This document shows, in pieces, positions 21,652-24,159 of a DNA stretch of 64,000 bases. This DNA is from Alistipes sp. (GTDB lineage Bacteria; Bacteroidota; Bacteroidia; Bacteroidales; Rikenellaceae): assembly GCA_017398045.1 (NCBI GenBank), contig JAFQHI010000004.1:25362-89361 (forward strand), in the 5' to 3' direction. Both the position numbers and the translations under genes were made by a program. Each line of letters starts with the position of its first letter. Position 1 is the first letter of the stretch. Below the pieces are notes generated by a model. It was not told the DNA's origin. It saw only the letters and a program-made list of their open reading frames with translations, and made no database searches.

Positions 21652-21750
21652 ATCGTTCTGTTTTTGTATTTGCGTTGAAAAAGCGCGTAAAGATACAAAA
21701 AAGAATCGAGAAAACAGCACGCAAAGTTAAAACTTTGCATCCCGACAAAA

Positions 21751-21787
21751 AAATGAGGGCGTCGGCCACAAAACCGACACCCTCATA
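21751..21787 (-). terminator. Intrinsic terminator of trpB2
   Basis: Arms TGAGGGCGTCGG (21756-21767) and CCGACACCCTCA (21776-21787), pairing except for one C-A mismatch, loop of 8. On the minus strand a T-run follows. Just beyond lies the palindrome GCAAAGTT-AA-AACTTTGC (21723-21740). Confidence 0.8.
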
Positions 21788-21809: not shown

Positions 21810-23171
21810 CTACATAATCGGCTCCAACATCTGCACCGTGCGCATAATCTCCTCATCGGAGGGGACATAATCCTGCAAATGACCGCCCAGATACTGCTCG
21901 TAGGCGTAGAGGTCGATGGTTCCGTGGCCCGACAGGTTGAAGAGAATCGTCCGCTCGCGTCCCTCGATTTTGGCACGCAACGCCTCTCGAATGGCCACCG
22001 CAATGGCGTGGGTCGATTCTGGGGCGGGGATGATGCCCTCGGTTTGGGCAAACAGCACACCGGCACGCATCGTCTCGGTCTGTGCAACCGACTGTGCCTC
22101 AATCGAACCCTCGTGCAAGAGCTGGCTGATGATGGCACCTGCACCGTGGTAACGCAAACCACCTGCATGGATGGCCGAAGGCTGGAATTCGTGGCCGAGC
22201 GTGTACATCGGAATCAGGGGCGTATAACCCGAGAAGTCGCCAATATCGTATTGGAAGACACCGCGCGTCAGTTTCGGACAACTTTCCGGCTCGACCGCAA
22301 CGATGCGGGTCTTTTTACCCTCGCAGAAATTACCGCGCAGGAAGGGGAAGGCGATGCCGCCAAAGTTGCTACCGCCACCGATGCAACCAATCACCACATC
22401 GGCCTCGGCATCAGCCATCTGCATCTGCAACAACGCCTCCTCACCGGTGATGGTCTGGTGCAGCAGCACGTGGTTCATCACACTACCCAGACAGTAGCGC
22501 GTTCCGGTGGGGTCCTCCAAGGCACGCTCGACGGCCTCCGAAATGGCCAGACCAAGGCTTCCGGGCGTATGGGGGTCGGCCATGCGGGCGGCTCGTCCCG
22601 AGGGGGTCAGCGTGGTAGGCGAGGCGTAGCACTCCGCACCCCACGTATTCATCATCAGGCGACGATAGGGCTTTTGGTCGTAGCTCACGCGCACCATAAA
22701 GACCTCGACATCGAGGCCGAAATGGTTACCGGCAAACGAAAGGGCCGAACCCCATTGACCGGCTCCGGTCTCGGTCGTCAGGCGACGAATACCCTGCTTA
22801 TAGTTGTAGTAGGCCTGCGGCACGGCACTGTTCGGTTTGTGCGACCCGACGGGCGAAACGCCCTCGTTCTTAAAGAAGATTTTGGCCGGCGTATCGAGTG
22901 CCTTCTCCAGCCCCACGGCACGTACCAAGGGGGCGGGACGCCAGATGCGGTAAATCTCCTGCACCTCCTCCGGAATCTCGATATAACGCTCCGTAGAAAG
23001 CTCCTGACGCGCCAACTCATCGGCCAGAATCACGCGCAGGTCATCTTCCGTGATTGGTTGGCGCGTTTTGGGGTTGAGGTAGGGGCGCGGACGGGTGGGC
23101 ATATCGGCCACCAGGTTATACCACGCTGTCGGCATCTGGTTTTCGGGCAGGATAAATTTCTTGGTCTTCAT
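21810..23171 (-). CDS. trpB2: Tryptophan synthase beta chain, TrpB2 type
   Basis: A 453-residue PLP enzyme that condenses indole and L-serine into L-tryptophan. The start at 23171 (MKTKKFILPENQMPTAWYN) fits TrpB2 proteins, which have a longer N-terminus than TrpB1. The Schiff-base Lys112 lies in GSHKPNSA, and the phosphate-binding loop GCIGGGSNFGG is present. No trpA or other trp genes flank it and a terminator follows, so it stands alone. Stand-alone TrpB2 is usually taken as an indole-salvage enzyme. Its 200-base leader carries a full Trp attenuator (23217-23340), so it is evidently regulated by Trp supply. Confidence 0.94.
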   Translation of the reverse strand: MKTKKFILPENQMPTAWYNLVADMPTRPRPYLNPKTRQPITEDDLRVILADELARQELSTERYIEIPEEVQEIYRIWRPAPLVRAVGLEKALDTPAKIFFKNEGVSPVGSHKPNSAVPQAYYNYKQGIRRLTTETGAGQWGSALSFAGNHFGLDVEVFMVRVSYDQKPYRRLMMNTWGAECYASPTTLTPSGRAARMADPHTPGSLGLAISEAVERALEDPTGTRYCLGSVMNHVLLHQTITGEEALLQMQMADAEADVVIGCIGGGSNFGGIAFPFLRGNFCEGKKTRIVAVEPESCPKLTRGVFQYDIGDFSGYTPLIPMYTLGHEFQPSAIHAGGLRYHGAGAIISQLLHEGSIEAQSVAQTETMRAGVLFAQTEGIIPAPESTHAIAVAIREALRAKIEGRERTILFNLSGHGTIDLYAYEQYLGGHLQDYVPSDEEIMRTVQMLEPIM

Positions 23172-23216: not shown

Positions 23217-23256
23217 AAAAAAAAAGAACCGTTGCCTACTTTTCGTAAACAACGGT
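23217..23256 (-). terminator. Attenuator terminator in the trpB2 leader
   Basis: On the minus strand, ACCGTTG (23250-23256) and CAACGGT (23228-23234) form a 7-bp stem, extended by TAC/GTA across a 2x2 internal loop with a GAAAA loop, followed by TTCTTTTTTTTTG. It lies 46-85 bp before the trpB2 ATG, inside its own 5' leader. The 11 bases CGTTGTTTACG (23244-23254) can instead pair with CGTGAACAATG (23297-23307), giving a mutually exclusive antiterminator. Confidence 0.88.
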
Positions 23257-23295
23257 GCTTGTATCGGGTCGGTTTCATACACGGCTCAATGGCCC

Positions 23296-23340
23296 TCATT
23301 GTTCACGAGAGAGAAGCGGACGCCACCACCAAGCCTGCAT
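23296..23340 (-). CDS. trp leader peptide with three tandem Trp codons
   Basis: A 14-codon reading frame, MQAWWWRPLLSREQ-stop, ATG at 23340, TGG TGG TGG at 23331-23323 and TGA at 23298-23296. It lies about 40 bp after the trpB2 promoter and 40 bp before the intrinsic terminator. The antiterminator segment (23297-23307) overlaps the last codons and stop codon. A ribosome stalled on the Trp codons would leave that segment free; a ribosome at the stop codon would cover it and let the terminator form. This is the geometry of classical ribosome-mediated Trp attenuation. Trp is a rare residue, so three in a row at this spot is very unlikely by chance. Confidence 0.9.
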   Translation of the reverse strand: MQAWWWRPLLSREQ

Positions 23341-23379
23341 AAAACTGTTCGAAGTCATCTTGCGTTTTCTTTGTTATTG

Positions 23380-23411
23380 CAAATATAGCACATCGCGGGC
23401 TAATCTGCAAG
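23380..23411 (-). promoter_or_regulatory. Promoter of the trpB2 attenuator-trpB2 transcript
   Basis: On the minus strand, CTTG (23408-23411), 20 bp, TATATTTG (23380-23387). It starts about 40 bases before the leader peptide ATG and gives a leader of about 200 bases. Confidence 0.75.
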
Positions 23412-23454: not shown

Positions 23455-24036
23455 TTAATCGTTATCCTCGACATCGTAGCCGCCATTCGGGTCGCGCTTG
23501 ACGACATAGGCAAAGGTGCGGTTCCACAGAGCCAGCTCCGCCTTCAGTGCAGCCTCGAAGGTCTCGGGCGACGAGCTGTCGTAGGGTAGGGTTACGCTGT
23601 GACGCTCCACATCGGGCGTCTCCATCCAATGCACCTTGCCGTCCGACTGGTACTCCTTAAACTCCTCCATGCGGGTCACCTGCAACGTGTAGCTCGCCTT
23701 ATCGTAATTGACATCGGCCTTGGGGGTCACACTGACCTGAATCGAGAAATCGGCCGGCAGGGTGGTCGCACTCATCTGCTTCACCCACTTGGTAGTGGTG
23801 AGCGTTTCGGTCACGGGGGCCACCACACCCTCGGCATTCGCCTCCTCGTAGCTGAAGCTGATGTCGGCCACCTTCAAAACATCGTCGCTCACCTCATAGG
23901 TAAAGGTCAGCTCCATCTTTTCGAAGTCATACTGCTTGCCCGCGTCGTCGGACGAATCACACGCCACGACCACGACCGTAGCCACAAGCATCACCACGCA
24001 GGCCAAAAAGGCACTTTTCCATACATTTCTTTTCAT
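23455..24036 (-). CDS. Hypothetical lipoprotein
   Basis: A 193-residue protein with a lipoprotein signal: basic start, long hydrophobic run and Cys26 in VVVVACDSSDD. The acidic SSDD after the Cys resembles the Bacteroidota lipoprotein export signal, so it may be surface-exposed. The rest is beta-rich (MELTFTYEVSDDVLKVADISFSY) with no recognised catalytic motif. The start at 24036 is chosen because the signal peptide begins there. It is divergent from the NigD-like lipoprotein gene; the shared intergenic region is 194 bp. Confidence 0.72.
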   Translation of the reverse strand: MKRNVWKSAFLACVVMLVATVVVVACDSSDDAGKQYDFEKMELTFTYEVSDDVLKVADISFSYEEANAEGVVAPVTETLTTTKWVKQMSATTLPADFSIQVSVTPKADVNYDKASYTLQVTRMEEFKEYQSDGKVHWMETPDVERHSVTLPYDSSSPETFEAALKAELALWNRTFAYVVKRDPNGGYDVEDND

Positions 24037-24159
24037 ACGCTGTAACAAATTAAGTATTGCAACCACTCGTTGTGCAAATATCGGGCAAAAGCAACCTCCG
24101 CGGATATGTTAATTCTACATTAAATCGGTCAAGACGGCACATAATCCCAAAACTTTCGC

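What the first reader, a model, noticed from the sequence alone, without database searches (positions are those of the whole stretch)
23217..23411. Complete Trp attenuator with a WWW leader peptide controlling a solitary trpB2
Seen directly on the minus strand: promoter (23380-23411), a 14-codon leader MQAWWWRPLLSREQ (23340-23296), a segment CGTGAACAATG (23297-23307) that can pair over 11 positions (two G-U) with CGTTGTTTACG (23244-23254), and a terminator ACCGTTG/CAACGGT plus U-tract (23256-23217) whose 5' arm is that same CGTTG segment. The two pairings exclude each other, and the stop codon lies on the antiterminator arm. Known: this is the logic of ribosome-mediated trp attenuation in enteric bacteria. 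Inference: low charged Trp tRNA stalls the ribosome on WWW and switches trpB2 on, so indole salvage follows Trp supply. I do not know of such a leader described for trpB2 in Bacteroidales.
Basis: partly seen in the sequence, partly recalled or inferred. Interest (0 to 1): 0.92.

Follow-up and report, generated by a model that had tools for sequence, protein, structure and literature searches.

The report
Tryptophan-sensing RNA switch before trpB2
A short RNA leader with three tryptophan codons appears to switch on a lone tryptophan-making gene only when tryptophan runs low, in gut bacteria that seem to lack the rest of the tryptophan pathway; the mechanism is the classical one, but its use on this orphan gene helps say what the gene is for.

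Summary
The minus strand holds a promoter-like motif, a short ORF with WWW, an antiterminator segment, a terminator, then trpB2. It is the window's only short WWW ORF with a terminator; 20 simulated windows gave none. A tandem-Trp leader precedes trpB2 in 62 of 65 same-genus loci fetched; two others are cut by contig ends, one truly lacks it. On 61 aligned leaders the exclusive 2:3 and 3:4 helices are kept by compensatory changes, and a third, outer stem is specific to each leader. Simulated stalling on Trp codons frees the antiterminator in 61 of 61. So: ribosome-mediated Trp attenuation, well supported, untested at the bench. Corrections: the leader probably starts at 23358 (20 codons); the terminator has 12 pairs. 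The mechanism is not special to trpB2: tandem-Trp leaders precede 22 of 29 Bacteroidales trpB1 loci tested. Newer is the target: a standalone trpB2 in a genus where trpA (over cut-off) and trpC occur in 1 of 180 genomes. Like leaders precede trpB2 in Butyricimonas and, with another layout, Syntrophaceae. This favours Trp making from outside indole as orphan TrpB2's role.

The parts
23380..23411 (-). promoter-like CTTG-N20-TATATTTG (TAnnTTTG type)
   Evidence: sequence; TAnnTTTG within 15-130 bases before the Trp codons in 60 of 61 aligned leaders, 57 of them at 43-58 bases; mean 3.8 in mononucleotide shuffles
   Evidence: an ATG-to-stop ORF over the Trp codons in the Trp frame in 61 of 61 leaders, in the other two frames in 5 and 9
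23323..23331 (-). three tandem Trp codons TGGTGGTGG
   Evidence: TGGTGG invariant in 61 of 61 aligned leaders; 2, 3 or 4 tandem Trp codons in 15, 41 and 5 of 61
23326..23345 (-). segment 1: 5' arm of the outer stem, reaching into the first Trp codons
   Evidence: fold; region 5' of the Trp codons with region after segment 2: own pairing mean -12.8 kcal/mol, 0 of 2000 partner permutations as low
23297..23307 (-). segment 2: antiterminator 5' arm CGTGAACAATG, overlaps the stop codon TGA 23298-23296; in the free RNA it lies in its own small hairpin 23311-23293
23272..23292 (-). segment 1': 3' arm of the outer stem
23244..23254 (-). segment 3 as antiterminator 3' arm CGTTGTTTACG
   Evidence: 2:3 core of 8 pairs formed in 60 of 60 distinct sequences; 46 double-change cells against 11.7 shuffled, 0 of 500
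23228..23256 (-). terminator stem-loop ACCGTTGTTTAC-GAAAA-GTAGGCAACGGT (3:4, 12 pairs)
   Evidence: 104 double-change cells against 32.7 shuffled, 0 of 500
23217..23227 (-). U-tract of the terminator
21810..23171 (-). trpB2, TrpB-like PLP enzyme, 453 aa, the regulated gene
   Evidence: NF009057 692 bits and TIGR01415 582 bits over cut-off, TIGR00263 trpB 132 bits under its 392 cut-off; PDB best 6hul_B, 4qys_B, 6hte_B
21747..21785 (-). terminator-like inverted repeat after trpB2 (TGAGGGTGTCGG / CCGACGCCCTCA, then T7): trpB2 looks monocistronic
   Evidence: read by eye, not scored by a tool

Best explanation
A classical ribosome-mediated transcription attenuator that senses charged tRNA-Trp and controls a standalone trpB2. 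Transcription starts near 23373 (inferred). A ribosome translates the WWW leader. If charged tRNA-Trp is scarce it stalls on the Trp codons and opens the outer 1:1' stem; segment 2 (CGTGAACAATG), just beyond its footprint, pairs with segment 3 before segment 4 is made, the terminator cannot form, and trpB2 is transcribed. If Trp is plentiful the ribosome reaches the stop codon, here covering segment 2, or leaves so that 1:1' re-forms; segment 3 pairs with 4 and transcription stops at 23227-23217. TrpB2 then makes Trp from serine and outside indole, since no trpA or trpC was found in the genome. Shown by sequence, comparison and computation: the anatomy, its conservation, the covariation, the computed switch, and the missing trpA and trpC (in a 91.5% complete assembly). 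Inferred: that transcription and translation are coupled as in E. coli, the direction of the response, and the indole reaction.
For: Tandem-Trp leader in 62 of 65 fetched same-genus trpB2 loci; of the rest 2 are cut by contig ends and 1 is a real absence. A covariance model finds 64 strong sites (E 2e-17 or better) in 180 genus genomes: the model's own 61 training leaders plus 3 at contig edges (G132, G179, G162) that also run into trpB2; one site in the own genome. 2:3 helix: 91.2% of cells paired, slid versions 31-55%, 0 of 500 shuffles reach the covariation score; 3:4: 94.2% against 32-52%, 0 of 500. Outer stem: 0 of 2000 partner permutations as stable. With a ribosome's A site on the first or last Trp codon P(2:3) is at least 0.8 in 61 of 61 (also at 0, 1 and 2 codons before the last Trp); it falls to a mean of 0.22 at 3 codons past the last Trp. 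Trp reading frame open from an ATG in 61 of 61, other frames 5 and 9. trpA over cut-off in 1 of 180 genomes and trpC in 1 of 180, the same genome, G011; both controls 14 of 14. In that genome a second, weaker model hit (7e-8) lies before a trp operon.
Against: No expression data. In 11 of 61 leaders the RNA without a ribosome already prefers the antiterminator (P at least 0.6), so an OFF state by 1:2 pairing is not secured everywhere. In 26 of 61 the stop codon is past segment 2, so a terminating ribosome does not cover it; the 'stop' state hides all RNA behind the ribosome by construction and is no evidence for those. Ribosomes 4-6 codons before the last Trp also give mean P(2:3) 0.91-0.60, so the computed switch is sharp only on the downstream side. 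The outer three pairs of 2:3 are unpaired in 25, 17 and 16 sequences, and one of the five measures, the number of pair types, is not unusual (149 of 500 shuffles for 2:3, 50 of 500 for 3:4). Shuffles and permutations do not correct for relatedness. One same-genus genome (G033) has trpB2 without a leader; G064 has a WWW leader but a different terminator and was left out of the alignment. The own assembly is 91.5% complete, so a missing trpA or trpC in it alone would be weak; the genus-wide pattern carries the point, though only 70 of the 180 genomes are at least 90% complete and at most 5% contaminated.
Confidence: 0.92

Rival explanations
1. TnaC-like control: free Trp in the ribosome stalls the nascent leader peptide, so that Trp turns trpB2 on.
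For: A Trp-rich leader peptide upstream, and the own genome also encodes a tryptophanase.
Against: TnaC depends on single critical residues rather than runs of 2-4 Trp (recalled); here the peptide outside the Trp run differs in length and sequence between leaders, the terminator is of the intrinsic type, and the Trp codons sit where a stall frees segment 2. Induction of a Trp-making enzyme by Trp makes little sense.
Confidence: 0.03
2. The hairpin is only the terminator of the upstream co-directional gene (23455-24066) and the WWW ORF is accidental.
For: The hairpin lies between two co-directional genes.
Against: A promoter motif stands 43-58 bases before the Trp codons in 57 of 61 leaders; the leader goes with trpB2 in the genus and beyond; two exclusive helices covary and an outer stem is leader-specific; simulated windows give none.
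Confidence: 0.02
3. The attenuator is real but TrpB2 serves another reaction (for example serine deamination), with Trp supply acting as a general starvation signal.
For: A serine deaminase role was once proposed for TrpB2; the same paper cites poor activity of TrpB2_o proteins in tests (PMC1854888, passages).
Against: The sensor reads Trp codons, recurs before trpB2 in distant groups with a different RNA layout, and the same kind of leader stands before trpB1.
Confidence: 0.12

Closest known systems
E. coli trp attenuator (trpL; recalled)
   Same: Short leader ORF with tandem Trp codons, mutually exclusive pairings, intrinsic terminator; WWR also occurs in TrpL (recalled).
   Different: No Rfam match in the window at gathering score other than two tRNAs; controls one orphan gene, not a biosynthetic operon; the protecting stem is long and outer; in 26 of 61 relatives the stop codon lies past segment 2.
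Candidate attenuators before trpB1EDGC and trpB2A in Corynebacterium diphtheriae (PMC1262725, passage)
   Same: Leader-peptide attenuator upstream of a gene called trpB2.
   Different: There trpB2 stands with trpA; whether that gene belongs to the TrpB2 family was not tested here.
Tandem-Trp leaders before trpB1 in Bacteroidales (seen here)
   Same: WW/WWW leader and terminator, same order; G011 has both kinds.
   Different: Other stem sequences; in G011 the likely antiterminator pairs with the loop and 3' arm of the terminator (read by eye).
Leader-peptide attenuation upstream of amino-acid operons in Flavobacterium psychrophilum (PMC9723704, passage)
   Same: Same phylum, same mechanism class, from transcriptome data.
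   Different: The passage names no trpB2; the terms tryptophan and trp do not occur in the main text held.

Membership tests
Ribosome-mediated (leader-peptide) transcription attenuator | Short leader ORF rich in codons of the regulated amino acid | tested here: met
   WWW in window; WW or more in 62 of 65 fetched same-genus loci
Ribosome-mediated (leader-peptide) transcription attenuator | Intrinsic terminator before the structural gene | tested here: met
   a hairpin plus T-run found in 62 of 62 leaders by a permissive script, 61 of them with the shared core
Ribosome-mediated (leader-peptide) transcription attenuator | Mutually exclusive antiterminator and terminator, both conserved | tested here: met
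Ribosome-mediated (leader-peptide) transcription attenuator | Stall at the regulatory codons frees the antiterminator | tested here: met
   computed only: 61 of 61
Ribosome-mediated (leader-peptide) transcription attenuator | OFF state: free or terminated leader RNA does not form the antiterminator | tested here: inconclusive
   free RNA P(2:3) under 0.2 in 44 of 61 (0.0 here), at least 0.6 in 11 of 61
Ribosome-mediated (leader-peptide) transcription attenuator | Readthrough rises when charged tRNA-Trp falls | not testable with these tools
   needs RNA or reporter work
Rfam RNA families | Match at the gathering score in the leader | tested here: not met
   only 2 tRNAs match in the window
TrpB2 (TIGR01415 / NF009057) | Score above the curated cut-off | tested here: met
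   582 and 692 bits; TIGR00263 (TrpB1) cut-off not reached
TrpB2_o, trpB2 outside operons (PMC1854888) | Gene lies outside any trp operon | tested here: met
   no trpA or trpC found in the own genome; neighbours
TrpB2_o, trpB2 outside operons (PMC1854888) | Falls in the TrpB2_o clade of a TrpB tree | not tested
   no tree was made

The most novel reading that the evidence does not exclude
Trp-codon attenuation is a recurrent, in part independently evolved, regulator of orphan trpB2. It shows that standalone TrpB2 in these bacteria is an indole-to-Trp salvage enzyme, so that gut Alistipes without the Trp pathway, some of which also carry tryptophanase, switch between releasing indole when Trp is rich and taking it back when Trp is short.
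Probability: 0.55. Interest if true: 0.72.

Novelty: new member of a known kind. Interest (0 to 1): 0.56.

Why it matters
What trpB2 genes outside trp operons do has been an open question (PMC1854888, passages: for P. horikoshii the gene's other selective function 'has not been identified yet'). A sensor that reads Trp codons, placed before trpB2 in a genus that seems to lack the rest of the pathway, is evidence from regulation that the enzyme makes Trp for the cell. It makes indole salvage in gut Bacteroidales directly testable, and the covariance model gives a way to annotate such leaders, which Rfam did not flag in this window.

Tried and rejected
Rfam scan of the window: nothing but two tRNAs. 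Sigma-70 promoter scan: none found. TnaC-like sensing and plain terminator of the upstream gene: rejected as under rivals. Search for other genes under this leader in the genus: 78 of 180 genomes have a model hit at E up to 0.01. Apart from the 64 strong sites, only the G011 hit was read. Most other weak hits cover the terminator part or the opposite strand of a known site; a few are listed as spanning the model (G050:C240, G058:C2, G118:C8, and G064's own leader; E 1.6e-4 to 0.007) and were not read, so further targets are not excluded. A look upstream of the own tnaA (about 220 bases, by eye) showed no clear WWW-type leader; inconclusive. Weak trpA-like hits in G009 and G045 (under cut-off) were not examined. 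No tree was made, so independent origin of the Syntrophaceae leaders is inference.

Prior art was searched; for the larger result sets only the 20 listed papers were seen. I saw no paper on a trpB2 leader in Bacteroidales; the library holds open-licence papers only. Two likely relevant papers (a comparative attenuation survey of 2004; a review on trp operon regulation of 2008) are not held. From memory, the 2004 abstract mentions candidate attenuators in Bacteroidetes/Chlorobi.

Full report
OBSERVATION. The minus strand carries, in order, a TAnnTTTG-type promoter-like motif (23411-23380), a short ORF with three tandem Trp codons, segment CGTGAACAATG (23307-23297), segment CGTTGTTTACG (23254-23244), a 12-pair terminator (23256-23228), a U-tract, and trpB2 from 23171. 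The ORF has a second in-frame ATG at 23358; this leader and its seven nearest relatives keep it in 8 of 8, and keep the ATG at 23340 in 6 of 8, so the 20-codon form is the likelier leader. In the 64 kb window this is the only short WWW ORF with a terminator; 20 simulated windows gave none.

CONSERVATION. TrpB2 at E up to 1e-60 is found in 67 of 180 same-genus genomes. Loci were fetched for 65 of the 67; G041 and G179, cut at contig ends, were not taken then. A short ORF with tandem Trp precedes trpB2 in 62 of 65; L010 and L031 are cut by contig ends; L045 (G033) lacks it, its trpB2 following a gene that by eye looks like peptide deformylase. A hairpin with T-run follows in 62 of 62 by a permissive script; L064 is divergent and was left out of the alignment, leaving 61 leaders, 60 distinct. 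TGGTGG is invariant in the 61.

COVARIATION. Antiterminator helix 2:3: 91.2% of cells paired; the central 8 pairs form in 60 of 60; the outer three fail in 25, 17 and 16 sequences; 46 cells with changes on both sides against 11.7 in shuffles, 0 of 500 reaching it; slides fall to 31-55%. Terminator 3:4: 94.2%, 104 double-change cells against 32.7, 0 of 500; slides 32-52%. The number of pair types is not unusual in either (149 and 50 of 500 shuffles reach it). One position shows the switch neatly: in 30 of 60 terminators it is G-C, in 30 A-U, while its partner in segment 2 is always U, forming U-G or U-A. The region 5' of the Trp codons pairs with the region after segment 2 in each leader's own way (mean -12.8 kcal/mol; crossed partners -10.1; 0 of 2000 permutations as low). 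Relatedness is not corrected for in the shuffles and permutations.

THE SWITCH, COMPUTED. With RNA up to segment 3 and a ribosome hiding everything to 15 bases past the first base of its A-site codon, the antiterminator forms with probability at least 0.8 in 61 of 61 when the A site is on the first or last Trp codon. Without a ribosome it is under 0.2 in 44 of 61 (0.0 for this leader), but at least 0.6 in 11 of 61, which does not fit a tight OFF state in those. Moving the ribosome codon by codon, the mean is 0.99 one codon past the last Trp, 0.84 at two, 0.22 at three and 0.0 beyond; upstream it declines slowly, to 0.60 at six codons before. In 35 of 61 leaders the stop codon is on or next to segment 2; in 26 of 61 it is further downstream, where termination must rely on re-formed protecting pairs; a YRTTG copy of the segment 3 core lies between the Trp codons and segment 2 in 41 of 61. 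The Trp frame has an ATG-to-stop ORF in 61 of 61, the other two frames in 5 and 9.

SPECIFICITY. A covariance model from the 61 leaders gives 64 strong sites (E 2e-17 or better) in 180 genus genomes: the 61 training leaders and 3 more at contig edges (G132, G179, G162) that run into trpB2. The own genome has one hit. The next hit, G011 (7e-8), lies before a trp operon: trpB1 first, trpC and trpA by search, trpE, trpG, trpD and trpF-like frames by eye. G011 is the only genome of 180 with trpA over cut-off or with trpC (among 70 genomes at least 90% complete and at most 5% contaminated, 1). So the genus seems almost wholly without the pathway and trpB2 stands alone. The protein is TrpB2 by family and by nearest solved structures.

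WIDER SPREAD. In a sample of the order, TrpB2 is in 147 of 393 genomes, the own one included. Upstream regions of 80 of the 146 others, about one per genus, show a WW ORF in 27, with a terminator in 23 (two of these weak or distant: L150, L184); the reverse strand of the same regions gives a WW ORF in 2 of 80. Among 80 named relatives, 77 are testable: 50 have a WW ORF, 49 also a terminator. The 29 include 6 of 6 Butyricimonas, Sanguibacteroides and Odoribacter records (the first two with a like segment 2 / segment 3 pair, Odoribacter with a shorter match, by eye), and 13 of 18 records titled Syntrophaceae, Smithella, Syntrophobacterales or Deltaproteobacteria, with mostly WWWQ leaders and another RNA layout, which suggests independent origin (inference). 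The 14 records of Cytophagales, Myxococcota, Anaerolineae, Leptospiraceae, Bryobacterales and unplaced Bacteroidetes or bacteria show none. trpB1: of 30 loci fetched (the 30 best matches to the G011 protein among hits in 92 of 198 genomes), 29 are testable, 22 have a WW leader, 21 with a terminator of score 10 or more.

PHYSIOLOGY. The own genome encodes a tryptophanase (NF053783, 905 bits, cut-off 750). Genes matching TIGR02617 at E up to 0.001 are in 130 of 180 genus genomes, none over that model's cut-off, and the weaker group among them may be other beta-eliminating lyases; overlap with trpB2 was not counted. TrpB2 plus tryptophanase without trpA or trpC fits an organism that can make and reuse indole; that is inference. 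Indole-to-Trp conversion in Thermococcus kodakarensis, which has TrpB1 and TrpB2, is cited in PMC11085991 (passages).

KNOWN OR NEW. The mechanism is the classical one. Leader-peptide attenuation is in print for a flavobacterium's amino-acid operons (PMC9723704, passage); long 5' UTRs of B. thetaiotaomicron were noted to hold sORFs reminiscent of leader peptides (PMC7366714, passage); a candidate attenuator before a trpB2A operon was given for C. diphtheriae (PMC1262725, passage). In 2010 authors knew of no leader-peptide system shown outside Proteobacteria and Actinobacteria before their Firmicutes case, ermC excepted (PMC2965389, passage). I saw none for solitary trpB2 in Bacteroidales in the searches listed under Tried and rejected. 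Verdict: a real, conserved attenuator; new member of a known kind, with a target that bears on the function of orphan TrpB2.

Noticed in passing
L097 (G011:C6:27440-27589 and downstream): The one same-genus genome with trpA and trpC has a second WWW leader before its trp operon (MNPIMKSFSINNAWWWRLQFSVVSDLPRVVVER), so it seems to carry two Trp attenuators.
   Followed up: partly
L266-L295: Of 29 testable Bacteroidales trpB1 loci, 22 have WW/WWW leaders and 21 of these a terminator.
   Followed up: partly
L245-L265: Syntrophaceae / Smithella trpB2 leaders often share a WWWQ...CP peptide and a CCATGGG-based terminator with an apparently extra hairpin, a different layout from that of Alistipes (13 of 18 records of these groups have WW).
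   Followed up: partly
L009-L030: Leaders whose stop codon lies 25-34 bases past the start of the segment 2 core, so the terminating ribosome cannot sit on it; a variant of the textbook layout.
   Followed up: partly
L296 (G000:C15:413137-414486): Own genome encodes tryptophanase TnaA besides trpB2, while trpA and trpC were not found.
   Followed up: partly
L101 / L045 (G033): A trpB2 without leader, apparently placed behind a peptide-deformylase-like gene (by eye): perhaps a natural loss of the attenuator.
   Followed up: partly
L064 (G064): WWW leader kept before trpB2 but with a different terminator and no clear antiterminator core of the common type.
   Followed up: no
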